A stretch of 64,000 nucleotides of DNA from Sphingomonas panacisoli. Lineage in GTDB: Bacteria > Pseudomonadota > Alphaproteobacteria > Sphingomonadales > Sphingomonadaceae. The stretch lies in the NCBI RefSeq assembly GCF_007859635.1, contig NZ_CP042306.1:868001-932000 (forward strand). The letters are read 5' to 3'. Positions 49,405 to 57,797 of this stretch are shown in pieces. A program made the translations under genes and the position numbers. Numbering within the stretch: position 1 is the first letter of the stretch; each line of letters opens with the position of its first letter. Under the pieces are notes generated by a model. That model made no database searches, had not been told where the DNA came from, and worked only from the letters and a program-made list of their open reading frames with translations.

Positions 49405-49884
49405 TTACGCCGCCTGGCGGTTTGCTTCGGACGGCGCTTCGAGCCGATCATTGGCCGCTGGCACGGTCGCGCTGATCTCGATCTTGCGCGGCTTCATCGC
49501 CTCCGGAATTTCGCGCTTGAGCGAAATACGGAGCAGCCCGCTATCGAAGCTCGCGTCTTCCACCACAACGAAGTCGGCGAGCTGGAAGCGACGCTCGAAC
49601 GCGCGGGTGGCAATGCCGCGGTGCAGATAGCGGCCGGTGTCGGCCTCTTCCTTGCGCTTGCCGGTTACCGTCAGCTGGTTGTTCTGCGCGACGATCTCGA
49701 TCTCGTCGGGGCGAAAACCGGCGACGGCCAACGTGATGCGATACTGATCCTCACCCTGCTGTTCGATATCGAACGGCGGATACGTCTCGGTGTCGGCGCG
49801 CGCGCTCGTTTCGAGCAGATCGAACAGGCGATCGAAACCCACCGTCGAACGGCGGTACGGCGTGAAGTCGAAATTGGTCCTCAT
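49405..49884 (-). CDS. Small heat-shock protein Hsp20 (IbpA-like)
   Basis: 159 aa from the ATG at 49884 behind GGAGGATTTGGAT; a longer frame lacks support. The alpha-crystallin domain spans about residues 38-135 (YPPFDIEQQGEDQYRITLAV, GLLRISLKREIPEAMKPRKI), and the N-terminus TNFDFTPYRRSTVGFDRLFD is of the IbpA class. It is an ATP-independent holdase against aggregation. A heat-shock-type promoter candidate like that of groESL lies about 100 nt upstream. Confidence 0.94.
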   Translation of the reverse strand: MRTNFDFTPYRRSTVGFDRLFDLLETSARADTETYPPFDIEQQGEDQYRITLAVAGFRPDEIEIVAQNNQLTVTGKRKEEADTGRYLHRGIATRAFERRFQLADFVVVEDASFDSGLLRISLKREIPEAMKPRKIEISATVPAANDRLEAPSEANRQAA

Positions 49885-49984
49885 ATCCAAATCCTCCATT
49901 GAGCAATCTGAGCACAAGGAGCACCGGGAGAGAGCCGGTGCCCTCAAGTCGTCACCGGACCGAAATTCGCGTCCGGCGGCGGGC

Positions 49985-50178: not shown

Positions 50179-51345
50179 TCAGCGGGCGGAGGACGGTTCA
50201 GCAGCTAGAGTCATCGTCGCAAAGTCGATCGTAAGTACTTTAAGTTGGGGCAGGATGTCGCTCCCCACACGACCGGCACTGTCCGCGTTTTCCTCGATAG
50301 TGACCTTTTGCGATTCGAGCGCCGCGCCCGCTAGAGTGTACGAAAATTTGGGCAGGACGCGCTGCTTCACGCTGATGTAGCCACCCGCGCCACCCAGAGT
50401 GCCATTTCGCTCGGTGGCGCTGTCGATCTGCTGCTTGGTGAGCAGAGCAAGACCTGGCTGGCGGAGAGACGTCGCGTTTGCACCGCTATCGAACTGAGCG
50501 CCTGCCGTGCCGAGCGCCGTTTTCAGGGGAATACCGAGTCCAGACTCGTGCCAGTAAACGCGATCGACTTTGCCTGAGGGTTTCGGGGCGTCCATTCCAA
50601 GCGCCAGCCTCGTGCCGCCATCCAACCATGCAATCCGCCCGGTCGCGGCAATCGCCGGCAAACCAAGGATCCCTGGAATGACATAATCTTTGGCCAGCCG
50701 GAGCATTTCGTCGGGCAAGACCAACACCTGGATGTGACGGATCGTAACACCGCCGATCGTCGCCGTGTCGATAACGCCGAGCTTACCCTTAACGCTGCCC
50801 ACGGAAGTCCCGACGTCGGCCGTGCCAGCCACGAACTGCACACCGATCTTGGCAGCGGTGCTAGCCGGCAACGTCGTGATTTCGGCGCCCGTATCGACGA
50901 TCCACTGGAGAGCCGTGCCTTCGACCGTCACTTCTGCACTTCGGCTGCCCAGTGGGTTCGCCACCAATGATACGGTTGTTTGCCCCCTTGCGGTGGTCGC
51001 GGGCGTATCGCGGAACGCGGTCGCGATATCGAAATCACTTTTGTCTTCACTATCACCAGTGAGCTTGACCGCGTTGGCGCATGCGGTCACCCGGCGGATA
51101 CCGCCGACCCGCACGCCGAAGTCGTTGCATAGGCGGTGCCAAAGAAGTGCGCGCTGTCGGGCAGGTGCGTCTAAATGTGTTGCCAGCCATGCCTCGATCG
51201 CCGCGTCCTCCTTCTCGCCGCCAAGTTCTGCGTCGTAGGCCAATCGCTCAGCGGTGCCGGCGGCCGGAGGTGGACCATAAACGTTGGGCTGGGTCGGAGC
51301 AGCAGCGAGCGCGGCAAGAAGAAGCAAGGGCGTACGGACAGGCAT
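50179..51345 (-). CDS. Retropepsin-like aspartyl protease, two-motif
   Basis: A 388-aa exported protein (signal peptide LLLLAALAAAPT). Two aspartic protease signatures are present: WIVDTGAEITTLP near residue 148 and AQFDSGANATSLRQP near 285. This bilobal arrangement recalls pepsin-type proteins, although sequence style is retropepsin-like. An N-terminal domain of about 110 residues of unknown type precedes. Two catalytic Asp in one chain would allow monomeric activity. Family members with a single DTG act as dimers. Confidence 0.8.
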   Translation of the reverse strand: MPVRTPLLLLAALAAAPTQPNVYGPPPAAGTAERLAYDAELGGEKEDAAIEAWLATHLDAPARQRALLWHRLCNDFGVRVGGIRRVTACANAVKLTGDSEDKSDFDIATAFRDTPATTARGQTTVSLVANPLGSRSAEVTVEGTALQWIVDTGAEITTLPASTAAKIGVQFVAGTADVGTSVGSVKGKLGVIDTATIGGVTIRHIQVLVLPDEMLRLAKDYVIPGILGLPAIAATGRIAWLDGGTRLALGMDAPKPSGKVDRVYWHESGLGIPLKTALGTAGAQFDSGANATSLRQPGLALLTKQQIDSATERNGTLGGAGGYISVKQRVLPKFSYTLAGAALESQKVTIEENADSAGRVGSDILPQLKVLTIDFATMTLAAEPSSAR

Positions 51346-51613: not shown

Positions 51614-51967
51614 TTACTCCGCTGGACTGCGGAGAAGCCTTCTGGCGGTTTTAAGGGCAAGGGCTGCATCTTGGGCCGCGACAAGGGCGCTGACATAAGT
51701 ATCGGTCAATGGCCATAAAAATGCAGCGCCCAGTCGATCATCCTTAGTCCAGATCACGCGCGCGCGGAGCGTCTTTCCGCCACATTGGACCTCTAGGACG
51801 GTGTCCTGCGCAGGTGGCTCGCTAACGGAAACCAACACTCCCCCTGCCGAGAGGTTCAGGATGTGAGCCCGAGCGACGCGCTTCTCGACGGTTATCTCGG
51901 TCGGCTGAAAGAGCTTATAGCGGGGAGTGGCACGCAGATGATGCGCTCCATCGATCTCGATCATCAT
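51614..51967 (-). CDS. PilZ domain protein (paralogue)
   Basis: 117 aa taken from 51967 to match the paralogue at 28857-29207. The shared core RATPRYKLFQPTEIT and HILNLSAGGVLVSVSEPP marks PilZ. As in the paralogue, the first arginine motif is imperfect. It follows the CHASE2-EAL gene on the same strand by about 145 nt, so it may read out c-di-GMP from that locus. Confidence 0.72.
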   Translation of the reverse strand: MMIEIDGAHHLRATPRYKLFQPTEITVEKRVARAHILNLSAGGVLVSVSEPPAQDTVLEVQCGGKTLRARVIWTKDDRLGAAFLWPLTDTYVSALVAAQDAALALKTARRLLRSPAE

Positions 51968-52111
51968 CAGTACCCGCTCACGCCAACGTCGCGCGTTCAA
52001 AGCGCGCGGCACTCTGTCGGTTCCCCGGAAAAATCCCTAATGATACGTTGGTATTCTCCATCGCTGCCGACTGAAGTGCGGAGACAGCGTCGCGCTGTTC
52101 CAGCGTTCCGC

Positions 52112-54421
52112 TCATGCGGCCTGCCGCGCACCGATATCGAGCAAGACGGCGATCGAAGCGGCGTCGATCGGCTTGCTGATGAGATAGCCCTGCGCGAGAT
52201 CGCAATCGACCGACGTCAAGAATTTTAGACATTCCTCGGTTTCGACGCCTTCGGCGACGACCTTCAACCCAAGTTCGTGGGCGAGGTCGATCGTCGATCG
52301 TACAAGCACAGCGTCGCCGCGGTTCTGGTGTGCGAATTCGACGAAGCTGCGATCGATCTTGAGTTCGTCGAGCGGCAGCTTTTTCAGATAGGTTAGCGTC
52401 GACTGGCCCGTGCCGTAATCATCCATCGAAATCGCCACACCCAACGATTTGAATCTACCAAGCGCCGCCGCGGCGACATCGGGCGCGTGCATCGCCGCCG
52501 ACTCCGTCACCTCGAAAATCAGCAATCGGGGATCGACGCCGCTACCGCGTATGAGGTCCTCCAGTTGATCGATGAATGCCGTCGACTCCAGCAAGGTTGC
52601 CGACAGGTTGACGGCCGTGGTCACCTGATGACCGCGTGACCGCCACCGCTCGACATCGCGGATCGCGCAAGTGACGACGTGAAGCGTCAAGCTCGCGATG
52701 CGCCCGGCGCGTTCGAGCAGGGGAATGAAATGATCTGGCCGCAACATGCCATGGGTGCGATGGTTCCAACGGACCAACGCTTCCACGCTGGCGATTTCGC
52801 CCGTTCGAAGGTTCTTCTTGGGCTGATAGAGCGGGTAGACGTCGCCTGTCGCGATGGCGTCGTCCAGATCGCTGGCCAAGGACAATTCCGTGCTTGCTGC
52901 CTCCGCATCGGATGTCGCGTGCAAGTGCCAGCCGATGCCGCTGGTGAGCGCCAGGTCGGCCGCCATCGACGCGTTCGCAATCGCTGGATAGGCCCCGTCC
53001 GCCGCGACAATGGCCATGCCCGTCGCCACAGACACGTCAACTTTGCGGCCGGCCACTTCCACCGGCGTGAGCATCAACGCGCGCAACTGTTCATGTCGCA
53101 CGGCCAGCTGGTCGGCTGGCGCGACCGCCTGCCACGCAAGCACGCGGTCATCGACACGGTAAAGGGTGATACCGCCCGCGAGCACGCTGATTCTGTCGCG
53201 CACACGGCAAATCAAATCCGCGATTCCTCTCGCGCCGAGGGTCGCCAGCAAGCGGTCGTAATCGGCGATGCGAACGGCAGCAATTGCCGTGCCATCTTTG
53301 TTAGCAAGAGCTGCGGCCAAAGCGTGCTGATTAGGTAAGCCGGTCGCATCGTCGATCGCGCGACGAGTGGCCAACCAAGCATTCGCACGCACGACGGCTG
53401 CCCAGGTAATCGTTGCGTAAAGTGCGACGAGGCTGGGAACGAGCGAGGCCTCCAGCCCGGCGGAGCCGGCGATAGTGGATGCCGCAAACAGACCCAGGGT
53501 CGCGGCAGCAGAGCCTGCTGCCAGCAGAAGGGTCGATCGAACGCGCAGCAGCAACGAGCCTAGCAGGATCGCAAGGCACAACGGGCCGAACCAACCAGCC
53601 CGACTTGGGATGCCGCTTTCCAGGGTCAGCGCAGCAAGTGCCTGTATAACGACACCTGGAATAACACCGAAACGCGGCACGCCGTAGCGGTCGCCAATTT
53701 CGATCGCGGTGGCGCCGATGAGGACTTTTTTACCGCGGAGCAATGCAGGGTCGACCTTGCCGTCACGGATGTCGATGAAGCTAAAGCGTGGGATCGACGC
53801 TGGATCGATGGAATAATCGATCGGAAATTCAGCCCCCGCACTGCCGTTGCGTCCGGCAATCATCGCCGCGAGAGAGGGCCGCGGCAGGCCGTTGGTGATC
53901 TCTCCCAACGGGACATTGCGCACCTTGCCATCGGCGTCAGGCAGGACGCTGACAGTGGCGGCCAGGCTGTGCGCTCGCAGCTCGGGGATCGGCAAGGAGT
54001 CGATATAGCCATCACGTCGGTTGTCTGCGGCCTGACGGAACGTCGGCAACGTAACCAAGCCATCAGCCCGCGCGAGTGAAGCACCAAACGCTAAATCTTC
54101 GGCAGGGTTCGACGATGCCGAGAAATCAACGTCGAATGCTATCGACGCGACGCCAGCCAAGCGCAGACGGTCGACAGCAGAGGCGTAATTGTGTCGCGGC
54201 CATGGCCAGCGGTCGATCGCCGCGATGCTGCGCGCATCAACTTCTACGATGACAACGTCGCCAGTCGACTGATGATGGCGAAGGGCATAGCGGGCCTCGG
54301 CCAGACCATGTTCAAGCCCTTGGCCCAGCCCGGACCAACCCGTCATGAGGCCGATCAACAAGGCCCCGAGGAGAGTGAATAACCGCCAACGCCTGACGAG
54401 TTGTGGAATTGCTGTCGTCAC
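52112..54421 (-). CDS. CHASE2-GGDEF(degenerate)-EAL membrane phosphodiesterase
   Basis: 769 aa from GTG 54421, preceded by GAGGGCGGAGCG; a TTG 13 codons upstream is less likely. After an N-terminal helix the extracytoplasmic CHASE2 domain spans about residues 35-265 (VVIVEVDARSIAAIDRWPWP). Three membrane helices follow (270-340). The GGDEF-like domain has lost its signature (ITLYRVDDRVLAW in place of GGDEF). EAL is complete: VEALVRWNHR, IFEVTESAAM, DDYGTGQSTL, KIDRSFVEFA and VAEGVETEEC. It should degrade c-di-GMP in response to an external signal. It is 67 nt downstream of the FecR gene, likely one operon. Confidence 0.92.
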   Translation of the reverse strand: MTTAIPQLVRRWRLFTLLGALLIGLMTGWSGLGQGLEHGLAEARYALRHHQSTGDVVIVEVDARSIAAIDRWPWPRHNYASAVDRLRLAGVASIAFDVDFSASSNPAEDLAFGASLARADGLVTLPTFRQAADNRRDGYIDSLPIPELRAHSLAATVSVLPDADGKVRNVPLGEITNGLPRPSLAAMIAGRNGSAGAEFPIDYSIDPASIPRFSFIDIRDGKVDPALLRGKKVLIGATAIEIGDRYGVPRFGVIPGVVIQALAALTLESGIPSRAGWFGPLCLAILLGSLLLRVRSTLLLAAGSAAATLGLFAASTIAGSAGLEASLVPSLVALYATITWAAVVRANAWLATRRAIDDATGLPNQHALAAALANKDGTAIAAVRIADYDRLLATLGARGIADLICRVRDRISVLAGGITLYRVDDRVLAWQAVAPADQLAVRHEQLRALMLTPVEVAGRKVDVSVATGMAIVAADGAYPAIANASMAADLALTSGIGWHLHATSDAEAASTELSLASDLDDAIATGDVYPLYQPKKNLRTGEIASVEALVRWNHRTHGMLRPDHFIPLLERAGRIASLTLHVVTCAIRDVERWRSRGHQVTTAVNLSATLLESTAFIDQLEDLIRGSGVDPRLLIFEVTESAAMHAPDVAAAALGRFKSLGVAISMDDYGTGQSTLTYLKKLPLDELKIDRSFVEFAHQNRGDAVLVRSTIDLAHELGLKVVAEGVETEECLKFLTSVDCDLAQGYLISKPIDAASIAVLLDIGARQAA

Positions 54422-54488
54422 CGCTCCGCCCTCGTTCGAATGGGCGGTATTAGCCCTCAATCACCTAAAATTCCGTCAAGCACGACCT

Positions 54489-56006
54489 CTACTTCTTGCC
54501 GCCTCTACCTTTGTTGATCCCCGCACCGATGTCTTTGCCGCCAAGGCCGACATCCACGTCTACCAACCCCCCGACGTCGATATCGACAGCGGGACCGTTC
54601 CCACCTCCATTGCCTTTTGGGTTGCCATTGCCATTAACGTTGCCCGGTTCGGGCTTGGCATCGTTACCCTTACCGGGATCGGGCTTGGCATCGTTACCCT
54701 TACCGGGATCGGGCTTGGCATCGTTACCCTTACCGGGATCGGGCTTGGCGTCGTTGTCCTTGCCGGGATCGGGCTTGGCGTCGTTACCCTTGCCGGGATC
54801 AGGCTTGGCGTCGTTACCCTTGCCGGGATCAGGCTTGGCGTCGTCACCCTTGCCGGGATCGGGCTTGGCGTCGTTGCCCTTGGCGGGGTCGGGCTTCGCG
54901 TCGTTGCCCTTGCCTGGGTCGGGCTTGGCGTCGTTGCCCTTGCCCGGGTCGGGCTTGGCATCGTTACCCTTGCCAGGGTCGGGCTTGGCGTCGTTGCCCT
55001 TGCCGGGGTCGGGTTTGGCGTCGTTGCCCTTGCCAGGGTCGGGCTTGGCGTCGTTGCCCTTGCCGGGATCGGGTTTGGCGTCATTGCCCTTGCCGGTGTC
55101 GGGCTTGTCGTCACTGCTATTGCCGGGCTCGGGCTTGGCATCGTTGCCTTTGCCCGGACCCACGGCAGGACCGGGGGCGACAGGCACCGCAGCCGACATC
55201 GCTACGGTAGCGCTGGCGCTGCCGTTGCTCACGAGCCCACCGGTCACGGTTTCCAAATCGACGGGCTTCGCTTCGACGGGGGCGCCGACAACACTGTTAG
55301 ATACCTCGCTCCAGGCGAAGTCGTCATTGCTCTTCGCAGTCGTTCCGGACCCATTGTTCGTGGGCGTGGGAGCGGTTTCGCCGATCTTCGGCGAGTCTTC
55401 CGCTGTCGCCGGAGTCCGGCTCCCGCGCATCGGCGAGTCGATCACTCGACTGTTCTGACCCTGAATAGTCAAACGATACTGATCGCCGGCACCGACCACG
55501 GCGACCATGCCGGGGCGGATCAATTCGTTGGCGCCGCCATCGTTTGTCGCGACACCGACCGCCCCGTCGAGCACTTGCAGCGAGCTACCGTCCTGACCGA
55601 CCGTGACCGTGAATGTCGTGCCCTTCACCACGGCCGCGAGATATGGCGTCTTCACGCCGAAATGCGGTTTGTCGGTATGCTTCACCTTGAATAGGCCAGT
55701 GCCCCATTCCAGGAACATCTGGACCATCGACGGCGATTTGGCGTCGGGCACGCGAACGCGGCTCGCTGCTGAAACCGTGACGAAATCATCACCGCGCACC
55801 AGCACGGCGCGGGCCCCGGCACCGGTCACGACCGTCGCTCCCGCAGGAATGATGGAGCCGCGCGCGATCGGGTGGTCGCCGCTGGCGTCGCGCGTCACCA
55901 CGCGTCCGCTCGCTTCGCTTACGGTCCAATCGGCGCCCGCGGCCCATGCCGGTGCGGAAAGACACAGTGCGAACGTGCTCAGCGTGATCTTGAACGATTT
56001 GTACAT
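54489..56006 (-). CDS. FecR-domain protein with PGKGNDAKPD repeats
   Basis: A 505-aa exported protein: signal peptide to about residue 23 (SAPAWA). A FecR domain occupies residues about 55-165 (VSAASRVRVPDAKSPSMVQM, VVKGTTFTVTVGQDGSSLQV). A linker, about 17 copies of a ten-residue repeat (PGKGNDAKPD) at about residues 283-455, and a Gly-rich tail (GLGGKDIGAG) follow. It has no inner-membrane helix after the signal, so it is periplasmic or secreted rather than an anti-sigma factor. It pairs with a CHASE2 protein and a TpsB transporter, a recurrent trio. The repeats may span the envelope or bind polyanions. Confidence 0.87.
   Translation of the reverse strand: MYKSFKITLSTFALCLSAPAWAAGADWTVSEASGRVVTRDASGDHPIARGSIIPAGATVVTGAGARAVLVRGDDFVTVSAASRVRVPDAKSPSMVQMFLEWGTGLFKVKHTDKPHFGVKTPYLAAVVKGTTFTVTVGQDGSSLQVLDGAVGVATNDGGANELIRPGMVAVVGAGDQYRLTIQGQNSRVIDSPMRGSRTPATAEDSPKIGETAPTPTNNGSGTTAKSNDDFAWSEVSNSVVGAPVEAKPVDLETVTGGLVSNGSASATVAMSAAVPVAPGPAVGPGKGNDAKPEPGNSSDDKPDTGKGNDAKPDPGKGNDAKPDPGKGNDAKPDPGKGNDAKPDPGKGNDAKPDPGKGNDAKPDPGKGNDAKPDPAKGNDAKPDPGKGDDAKPDPGKGNDAKPDPGKGNDAKPDPGKDNDAKPDPGKGNDAKPDPGKGNDAKPDPGKGNDAKPEPGNVNGNGNPKGNGGGNGPAVDIDVGGLVDVDVGLGGKDIGAGINKGRGGKK
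54640..55165 (-). repeat. 30-bp coding minisatellite (about 17 units)
   Basis: A tandem array with unit TCGTTGCCCTTGCCGGGATC plus GGGCTTGGCG on the plus strand. Units differ by synonymous and a few replacement changes. The 30-bp period is a multiple of three, so unit gain or loss keeps the FecR protein in frame. It also leaves several other frames open, producing long spurious ORFs. Confidence 0.95.
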
Positions 56007-56144
56007 CCCGGACTCCCCGATTCCGGACCGGCGTATCTGGAAGGTCCTGCAACGAGCTTAGTTTTTAGGGTTAAAATCCCGGAAGGTTTTGACGATTTTG
56101 TAACAACTTGATGACTACCCACGGTCATTCGGAAGGGGTGTCGT

Positions 56145-57797
56145 GTGAAGCGTTGTCTTGTCGATTATGTGCTATCCGCTGCGATGACTGCGGCCTTAGC
56201 GTCGCCCGCTACGGCGCAAACAACGCTCGACCGTGTGGCGCCTCCTTCGCGCGCCCCCGACCCGGCACCCGAATCAGTGGCTTCGACCCTGCCGCCTTTG
56301 ATCCGAGACAATCCGACCGCCACGCTCGCCCCCGAAATAGGCGGCACAGTCACGGTGGGGGCCATTTCGCTGTCTGGCCTGACAGTGTTGAGCGCGGATC
56401 AGTTCAGCGACATTCTGACGGACTTTGTCGGCAGATCGCTGGGATCGAACGATCTCGCCGCGCTGACCGATCGCATCGCCACGCGCGCGCGCGATCGCGG
56501 ATACGTTTTCGCGACGGCACGCATCATGCCGCAACGGCTAACGGCTGGTGTGCTGATCGTCGCTGTCGACGAAGGCCGCATCGATCGCGTGGATGTCGAT
56601 GGTAGCGACAATCGAGCGGTCCGCGCTGCGCTCGCACCACTTGCCAACGGGCAGCCCGTGACCCTGGGTGCACTGGAGCGCCGGTTGCTGATTGCCGGCG
56701 ACATCGACGGTATCCGCGTACGCCGCGCCAAGCTCGTCCGCGATGGGAGTGTGGGAGCCCTGGTCGTGACCGTCGCGCAAGACAGGGTTTCCGCAAGCCT
56801 TTCGCTCCGCAACGACGGTACCCGGCCCATCGGCCCGATCGAGCTCCACGCCAGCCTCATGATCGCGCAACTGTTCGCGGCGGACGATTCAGTAACGTTC
56901 GGTTACTCGACCTCGCTCGTCCAACCCCGTGAGCTCCAATATGGACGGGTTCGGTATCAGAAGCAGATCGGTACCACGGGCACGGCATTGTCGATCGCGT
57001 CGACCTATTCGGTGATCCAGCCAGGGTCGTACCTTTCATCGTACGACATTCTCGGGCGTAGCTGGTCGCAGTCGCTTGGCCTGCTACAGCCACTGTATCG
57101 TCGCCGCCATTCGAGCCTTTGGTTGACCGGCTCGTTAGAGGTAGACAATCTCACTCAACGTCGCGGGAGCACGGAGGTCAGGCGCGACCGAGCGTCCGTC
57201 GCGCGGGTGGGCCTATACGGCTATGACGACATGCTGGGTGGCCGGCTCCGCGTGAGCGCGATCCTGTCGCAAGGGGTTGATCTGTTCGACGCGACAGGAC
57301 GAAACGACCCCCTCGCTTCGCGGTTTGACGCCGATGGCACTTTTACGGCTGCAAACGTCTGGATCGAATGGACCCGACCGATGGGCTCGGGGTTCAGCAT
57401 CCGATTGGCCGGCGATAGCCAGATCGCGTCGCAGCCTTTGCTCGTCGGCGAGGAAGTGTCGCTGGGCGGGAGTACGTTCTTGCGCGGCTATGACTGGAGC
57501 GAACGCTCCGGCGATCAGGGCGCAATGGGCTCCGCCGAGCTGCGCTGGGATATCAAACGCCCGTTTGGTATCGCCAGGCGCGCGCAGCTTTACGCCTTTG
57601 GTGACGGTGGTGTGGCGCGAAACCTGTCCAATGGCTTCGGCGGCGGCTCGCTGGCATCCGTTGGTGGCGGGCTACGGGTAGATATCACGCGATCGTTCGG
57701 CGCGACGGCGGAAATCGCAGTGCCCCTGTCGGGAGTGCGCTATGACACGCGCAATCGCCAGCCGCGCGTCAACCTAGGAATCTCCACCTCGTTCTAA
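56145..57797 (+). CDS. TpsB-type two-partner secretion transporter (ShlB/FhaC/HecB)
   Basis: A 550-aa Omp85-superfamily transporter. A signal peptide (MTAALASPATA) precedes a short N-terminal region with POTRA domains (about residues 65-215; VTVGAISLSGLTVLSADQFS). The 16-strand barrel has the conserved FLRGYDWSERSGD motif near residue 445 and terminal Phe. TpsB proteins export large TpsA exoproteins, but no TpsA gene is visible. The gene is divergent from the FecR/CHASE2 operon, starts at GTG 56145 behind GGAAGGGG, and is probably part of the same functional module. Confidence 0.9.
   Translation: MKRCLVDYVLSAAMTAALASPATAQTTLDRVAPPSRAPDPAPESVASTLPPLIRDNPTATLAPEIGGTVTVGAISLSGLTVLSADQFSDILTDFVGRSLGSNDLAALTDRIATRARDRGYVFATARIMPQRLTAGVLIVAVDEGRIDRVDVDGSDNRAVRAALAPLANGQPVTLGALERRLLIAGDIDGIRVRRAKLVRDGSVGALVVTVAQDRVSASLSLRNDGTRPIGPIELHASLMIAQLFAADDSVTFGYSTSLVQPRELQYGRVRYQKQIGTTGTALSIASTYSVIQPGSYLSSYDILGRSWSQSLGLLQPLYRRRHSSLWLTGSLEVDNLTQRRGSTEVRRDRASVARVGLYGYDDMLGGRLRVSAILSQGVDLFDATGRNDPLASRFDADGTFTAANVWIEWTRPMGSGFSIRLAGDSQIASQPLLVGEEVSLGGSTFLRGYDWSERSGDQGAMGSAELRWDIKRPFGIARRAQLYAFGDGGVARNLSNGFGGGSLASVGGGLRVDITRSFGATAEIAVPLSGVRYDTRNRQPRVNLGISTSF

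What the first reader, a model, noticed from the sequence alone, without database searches (positions are those of the whole stretch)
52112..57797. FecR / CHASE2-EAL / TpsB locus with no TpsA partner: candidate envelope signalling-secretion system
Seen: an exported FecR-domain protein with about 17 decapeptide repeats and a membrane CHASE2 protein with a complete EAL domain sit in one orientation, divergent from a TpsB-type transporter. Known: TpsB normally exports an adjacent large TpsA, and FecR domains normally sit in sigma/anti-sigma relays; neither partner is here. Inference: the periplasmic FecR protein may be the TpsB client or a plug, and CHASE2 may couple occupancy to c-di-GMP turnover, with the PilZ gene at 51.6 kb as read-out.
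Basis: partly seen in the sequence, partly recalled or inferred. Interest (0 to 1): 0.8.

Follow-up and report, generated by a model that had tools for sequence, protein, structure and literature searches.

The report
TpsA-less TpsB–FecR–CHASE2 envelope signalling module
Three neighbouring genes (an outer-membrane export pore, an exported FecR-fold protein with a long floppy tail, and an inner-membrane sensor that should destroy the messenger c-di-GMP) stay together in many alphaproteobacteria without the pore's usual cargo, which points to an undescribed way of linking the cell surface to the cell interior.

The parts
52112..54460 (-). Inner-membrane receptor: CHASE2 ectodomain (residues 37-292), degenerate GGDEF-like stretch without Pfam match, complete EAL phosphodiesterase domain (531-764)
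   Evidence: Pfam; key EAL residues invariant in 7 of 7; a CHASE2 relative in 58 of 58 TpsB-bearing loci whose contig runs past FecR, with EAL in the same ORF in 55
54489..56006 (-). Exported FecR-domain protein: signal peptide, all-beta N-domain (about 24-190), low-complexity tail
54640..55158 (-). 17.3 tandem copies of a 30-bp unit coding for the decapeptide repeat of the FecR tail
   Evidence: TRF; tails in relatives are other low-complexity sequences
56145..57797 (+). TpsB-type Omp85 transporter (POTRA_2 + ShlB barrel), divergent from FecR
56007..56144 (.). 138-bp divergent intergenic region between the FecR and TpsB genes
   Evidence: sequence read; no sigma-70-like site found in it
51614..52012 (-). 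PilZ-domain gene downstream of CHASE2-EAL; optional neighbour, not part of the conserved core
   Evidence: Pfam; PilZ-like ORF in 8 of 80 related loci

Best explanation
A three-part trans-envelope signalling module built on a TpsB that has no TpsA. SHOWN (sequence, conservation, models): the three genes form one conserved module; the FecR-type protein begins with a signal peptide, has a PupR-like beta domain without anti-sigma, membrane or STN parts, and ends in a long low-complexity tail; TpsB models with the CdiB/FhaC fold; the receptor has an intact EAL domain here and a histidine kinase in the five trio loci scanned in other families. INFERRED: the FecR protein goes to the periplasm by Sec, its folded N-domain stays at the inner face of TpsB while the floppy tail enters or passes the barrel towards the surface; the CHASE2 ectodomain senses whether the N-domain is held by TpsB or free, and this sets the EAL activity and so c-di-GMP (or a kinase elsewhere). 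TpsB thus serves as anchor or gate of a sensor protein rather than as exporter of a large adhesin.
Against: No direct evidence of contact, threading or secretion. FecR with similar tails and a CHASE2 kinase or EAL occurs in G144, G343, G145 and G189, which have no match to this TpsB profile (E<=1e-6) anywhere, so the tail is not explained by TpsB alone. Retention-module likeness is below the curated cut-off (23.3 of 50 bits for the window) and its fold match is middling; another profile, Lsa33 (a surface adhesin by its name), matches 88 of 88; for the window protein it too is far below its cut-off. No LapG protease in 8 of 8 trio genomes. FecR-TpsB tree agreement may reflect common vertical descent while CHASE2-EAL is exchanged; no species-tree control was possible. 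In the 44 loci with FecR and CHASE2-EAL in one operon the plain correlations are closer (FecR-CHASE2 0.65, POTRA-CHASE2 0.77, FecR-POTRA 0.74 at equal columns). The 80 loci are the closest of 314 relatives; in the class set TpsB adjoins only 12 of 24 FecR loci.
Confidence: 0.45

Rival explanations
1. FecR stays wholly periplasmic and acts as a relay: TpsB is an outer-membrane receptor or gauge whose POTRA domains touch FecR (as a TonB-dependent transducer's STN domain touches PupR/FecR), and FecR passes the state to CHASE2. The tail is a spacer in the periplasm; nothing is exported.
For: FecR domain has the PupR CJM fold used in outer-membrane-to-inner-membrane relays; FecR-CHASE2 pairs exist without TpsB beside them, and seven FecR-bearing genomes have no match to this TpsB profile at all; Burkholderia relatives carry a LysM peptidoglycan-binding domain (PMC5192318, passages).
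Against: The STN subdomain that PupR also needs for binding (PMC7186176, passages) was not found; a pure relay does not explain why FecR has a 200-550-residue tail that differs so much between species.
Confidence: 0.3
2. TpsB exports a different, unrecognised substrate encoded elsewhere, and FecR/CHASE2 is a sensor of that secretion or of envelope stress.
For: Nine further ShlB-CHASE2 loci exist in the family set, six of them with a TpsA-type hit right behind TpsB, so CHASE2 may watch secretion in general; only one of the nine was checked by Pfam.
Against: No TpsA by PF05860 or by a family-specific TpsA profile in four trio genomes; no gene family other than the trio in more than 12 of 80 loci, and only seven ORFs over 1100 aa chosen in the 80 loci, one of them a FecR ORF.
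Confidence: 0.15
3. Unrelated neighbours or shared synteny of close relatives.
For: The 80 named loci are nearly all Sphingomonadales by their titles (three are titled only Alphaproteobacteria and one Proteobacteria).
Against: The surroundings vary, the trio survives rearrangement, FecR-TpsB adjacency recurs in ten other family codes; 15 of 54 ShlB hits lie within 6 kb of a CHASE2 where 0.37 is expected.
Confidence: 0.02

Closest known systems
FecR + CHASE2 operons (Burkholderia BiofilmReg, PMC5192318; Campylobacterota CHASE2 cyclase/FecR/TPR/PDE cluster, PMC9239204)
   Same: Exported FecR-domain protein encoded beside a CHASE2 receptor; variable output domain
   Different: No TpsB mentioned in the passages read; LysM on FecR or a TPR partner; outputs are kinase or adenylate cyclase
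Cell-surface signalling PupB-PupR / FecA-FecR-FecI (PMC7186176; 6ovk)
   Same: FecR domain has the PupR juxta-membrane (CJM) fold; outer membrane to inner membrane logic
   Different: No anti-sigma domain, membrane helix or STN subdomain found; no TonB-dependent receptor or sigma factor among the scanned neighbours
Two-partner secretion (FhaB/FhaC, CdiA/CdiB; CdrA/CdrB, name recalled, for c-di-GMP control)
   Same: TpsB with POTRA and ShlB barrel, CdiB/FhaC fold; a c-di-GMP link as for the P. aeruginosa type Vb adhesin described in PMC13090378
   Different: No TpsA or TPS domain; the adjacent exported protein is FecR-type
LapD/LapG/LapA adhesin retention (PMC13090378)
   Same: N-terminal domain with weak likeness to a retention module, repeats after it, c-di-GMP protein in the inner membrane
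   Different: No LapG; EAL intact, not catalytically dead; TpsB instead of TolC-like LapE; low-complexity tail
PUMA3 (VreA/VreI/VreR) of P. aeruginosa (PMC2729926)
   Same: FecR-type signalling tied to a TPS system
   Different: Sigma/anti-sigma transcription control of a complete TpsA/TpsB pair
RcsF in BamA (entry 6t1w listed; biology recalled)
   Same: Precedent for a periplasmic sensor held in an Omp85 barrel
   Different: Different proteins; threading here is only proposed

Membership tests
Two-partner secretion (type Vb) | TpsB with POTRA_2 and ShlB domains and FhaC/CdiB fold | tested here: met
Two-partner secretion (type Vb) | Cognate TpsA with TPS domain, usually adjacent | tested here: not met
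   0 in own genome and in 3 other trio genomes with PF05860 and with profile A6; genomes outside the profile (G033, G031) ring
Cell-surface signalling (FecR/PupR type) | FecR periplasmic beta fold (CJM) | tested here: met
Cell-surface signalling (FecR/PupR type) | Anti-sigma domain and membrane helix in the FecR protein | tested here: not met
   protein begins with a signal-peptide-like helix (3-15), then the beta domain; only FecR in Pfam
Cell-surface signalling (FecR/PupR type) | STN domain in regulator or outer-membrane partner | tested here: not met
   no STN in Pfam scan of FecR or TpsB at E<=0.01; TpsB carries POTRA
Cell-surface signalling (FecR/PupR type) | Adjacent ECF sigma factor | tested here: not met
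   nine neighbouring window ORFs between 48.6 and 63.5 kb scanned, no sigma domain; relatives' neighbours were clustered, not all named
FecR-CHASE2 pair | Exported FecR-domain protein next to a CHASE2 receptor | tested here: met
   literature
LapA/LapD/LapG-type retention | Retention module at the N-terminus | tested here: inconclusive
LapA/LapD/LapG-type retention | LapG protease (Peptidase_C93) | tested here: not met
   0 of 8 genomes, control Caulobacter rings
LapA/LapD/LapG-type retention | Catalytically dead GGDEF-EAL receptor | tested here: not met
   EAL key residues invariant in 7 of 7
TpsB client | FecR protein secreted or threaded by TpsB | not testable with these tools
   needs experiment; indirect support

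The most novel reading that the evidence does not exclude
A new class of outer-membrane-to-cytoplasm signalling in Alphaproteobacteria in which a TpsB has no adhesin cargo and instead carries the tail of a periplasmic FecR-fold sensor through the outer membrane; the CHASE2 receptor, with interchangeable EAL or kinase output, reads whether that surface-exposed 'dipstick' is seated.
Probability: 0.35. Interest if true: 0.88.

Novelty: new variant of a known kind. Interest (0 to 1): 0.72.

Why it matters
What CHASE2 domains recognise was called unknown in PMC5192318 (2016), and I know of no assigned job for a TpsB without a TpsA (recalled, not searched beyond). A conserved trio gives a concrete, testable partner for both: a candidate protein ligand for CHASE2 and a candidate non-adhesin client for a TpsB. 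If right, it would be another way, besides TonB-dependent transducers and RcsF-type lipoproteins, to carry information across the outer membrane, tied in sphingomonads to c-di-GMP.

Tried and rejected
Distant TpsA: looked for with PF05860 (own genome; 59 genomes) and, because PF05860 missed the large ORF behind the TpsB of G042, with a profile of five TpsA N-termini from the family. G042 and G050 lent sequences to that profile, so their hits are partly by construction; G033, G031, G041, G023 and G070 did not. None of the hits lies beside a trio TpsB.

PilZ as fixed read-out: rejected as a core part (8 of 80 loci), kept as an optional neighbour.

Unknown ~250-aa protein of the CHAT/CHASE2-cyclase/TpsBA locus as a hidden FecR: not supported, hhalign probability 9.5% for a 12-sequence alignment of such proteins.

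LapG-type cleavage: no Peptidase_C93 in 8 of 8 genomes. A scan of viral contigs with patterns from this TpsB gave no relative. Promoter and terminator patterns came out near chance. Rfam found one element in 48-60 kb, a ROSE element by the Hsp20 gene. A literature search for 5IX9 gave 0 papers, so its identity as an ice-adhesin anchoring domain is recalled. That the trio is not in print rests in the held library; most subscription papers and preprints were not searched.

Control limits: the tree comparisons lack a species tree. (55 loci; FecR-TpsB 0.94, FecR-CHASE2 0.66, EAL with all others under 0.2) is not used because its EAL rows could come from another protein than its CHASE2 rows; one search takes both from one ORF and keeps 53 of 80 loci (dropped: loci lacking one gene, with X, or with a short TpsB or receptor). 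Both structures are predictions. The Foldseek and VIA lists are capped. Neighbour genes come from a simple ORF chooser of mine. The expectation assumes uniform placement.
Full report
WHAT IS THERE. The three genes are real and placed as reported: CHASE2-EAL 52112-54460(-), FecR 54489-56006(-) with 17.3 thirty-base repeats at 54640-55158, TpsB 56145-57797(+). FecR and CHASE2-EAL are 28 bp apart, FecR first. The divergent gap to TpsB is 138 bp. The window lies in one 3.40-Mb contig. The closest named FecR relative is from Sphingomonas asaccharolytica (75% over residues 6-211).

IS IT CONSERVED? Yes, and this is the main result. In one genome per genus of the family (59 genomes), coordinates of CHASE2 and ShlB and gene reading show divergent TpsB / FecR / CHASE2-EAL in six; a seventh, G023, is split over two contigs that both break inside the FecR repeats. 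In GTDB contigs 314 stretches encode FecR relatives; of the best 80, 77 have TpsB divergent from FecR. In 19 of these 77 the contig ends inside FecR, probably because of the repeats. In the other 58, CHASE2 lies behind FecR (49), behind TpsB on the other strand (8) or convergent with FecR (1); EAL is in the same ORF in 55, while L177 and L187 are cut by contig ends and L192 has CHASE2 and EAL in two ORFs. The three loci without TpsB are L196 (FecR + CHASE2-EAL), L197 and L220 (FecR alone). Clustering of all 1106 chosen ORFs, the trio included, gives the three families (76, 58 and 45 loci by whole-length clustering) and then nothing above 12; one member each of four of the next families was scanned: acyl-CoA dehydrogenase, enoyl-CoA hydratase, pyruvate kinase, YbjQ. 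In 101 genomes of the window's genus, 30 have FecR; 30 of 31 matches had loci, and TpsB is divergent beside 29, the other being cut by a contig end.

WIDER DISTRIBUTION. In 289 genomes of the class, 23 have a FecR match (24 loci): TpsB adjoins 12, nine of them outside the family; CHASE2 lies in the 1.5-kb flank of 19. In 398 genomes of the phylum, 40 match; of 25 further loci looked at (of 45 matches), TpsB adjoins 14, eleven outside the family, and CHASE2 lies in the flank of 15. Together FecR-TpsB adjacency is seen in ten other family codes, with CHASE2 visible in nine (in f107 the contig ends in FecR). The eight FecR loci looked at outside the class have no TpsB beside them. Ten CHASE2 proteins from outside the family were scanned and all ten are histidine kinases, five in trio loci and five without adjacent TpsB; the receptors of the loci were not scanned. 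EAL outputs occur in G196 and G189 by my own profile and on a Bosea plasmid, annotated ShlB / FecR / EAL in the same layout. Two annotated Rhizobium plasmids have FecR + EAL genes and no TpsB next to them (CHASE2 and EAL checked in one). So FecR-CHASE2 is the broader pair and TpsB joins it in many lineages.

NO TpsA. PF05860 finds nothing in the own genome although 28 of 59 family genomes ring. A profile from five TpsA N-termini of the family also finds nothing in G000, G044, G051 and G055; in G041, G050 and G023 every hit sits beside another TpsB; G042, G033 and G031 ring, of which G042 is in the profile. The own genome has a second TpsB at 683.7-685.2 kb, also without TpsA, beside a Ser/Gly-rich protein with a lipoprotein-like signal.

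WHO GOES WITH WHOM. Over 53 loci, FecR and TpsB distances correlate at 0.90 (partial 0.86), FecR-CHASE2 at 0.54 (partial 0.15), TpsB-CHASE2 at 0.57 (partial 0.02), CHASE2-EAL of one protein at 0.71 (partial 0.60); in the 44 loci where FecR and CHASE2-EAL are in one operon, FecR-TpsB partial is still 0.79 against 0.12 for FecR-CHASE2. With 160 columns each, all 53: FecR-barrel 0.82, FecR-POTRA 0.77, POTRA-barrel 0.82, FecR-CHASE2 0.49; in the 44: 0.83, 0.74, 0.82, 0.65, and POTRA-CHASE2 0.77. FecR and TpsB look inherited as one unit; lacking a genome tree I cannot separate coevolution from common descent.

MECHANISM. The data fit best a TpsB that handles the FecR protein, with the folded domain periplasmic and the tail in or through the barrel, and a CHASE2 receptor that reads the state. 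What speaks against threading as the whole story: G144, G343, G145 and G189 have FecR proteins with the same kind of tail, a CHASE2 partner, and no match to this TpsB profile. Direction of the signal is unknown.

KNOWN OR NEW. FecR-CHASE2 operons are in print (PMC5192318 and PMC9239204, passages read); what CHASE2 recognises is called unknown in the first. PMC5498481 (passages) names both domains; the passages do not pair them. c-di-GMP control of a type Vb adhesin with a periplasmic retention part is known for P. aeruginosa (PMC13090378, passages; the name CdrAB is recalled). PUMA3 ties FecR-type signalling to a TPS (PMC2729926, passages). No held paper combines the words CHASE2 and two-partner secretion (0 papers), and the searches gave no report of the trio (listings only, apart from the papers named).

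RELATED PATTERN. In the same 59 genomes 15 of 54 ShlB hits lie within 6 kb of a CHASE2, 0.37 expected. Six are trios (the split one in G023 is not counted); nine are loci of another type, six of them with a TpsA-type hit directly behind TpsB, exemplified by G050: CHAT-TPR, a 250-aa protein, CHASE2-cyclase, TpsB, TpsA. CHASE2 receptors may thus watch two-partner secretion more generally.

Noticed in passing
L126 (G050:C2:30000-48000); similar by position L121-L125, L129: CHAT-TPR protein, ~250-aa protein without Pfam match, CHASE2-cyclase, TpsB and large TpsA in one cluster; nine ShlB-CHASE2 loci of this non-trio type by position, one checked by Pfam.
   Followed up: partly
L130:7688-10561 (G000:C1 about 683.7-686.6 kb): Second TpsB of the own genome, also without TpsA, next to a Ser/Gly-rich protein with a lipoprotein-like signal (P0121); in same-genus G070 the second TpsB has an adjacent TpsA-profile hit.
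   Followed up: partly
49878-49976 (-): ROSE RNA thermometer (Rfam RF00435, 60.8 bits) at the start of the Hsp20 gene 49405-49947.
   Followed up: no
L211, L214, L219, L224-L228: Subgroup where CHASE2-EAL lies behind TpsB and the FecR tail is Ala-rich (helix-like) instead of Gly/Asn-rich.
   Followed up: partly
L273, L270, L191: Two tandem FecR genes beside one CHASE2 or TpsB.
   Followed up: no
L153, L158, L159 (behind TpsB); L197, L214, L222, L226 (behind FecR); L209: PilZ-like ORFs close to the module at different positions, 8 of 80 loci; possibly an optional c-di-GMP read-out.
   Followed up: partly
50179-51345 (-): Retropepsin-like aspartic protease (Asp_protease_2), apparently exported, two genes downstream of CHASE2-EAL.
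   Followed up: no
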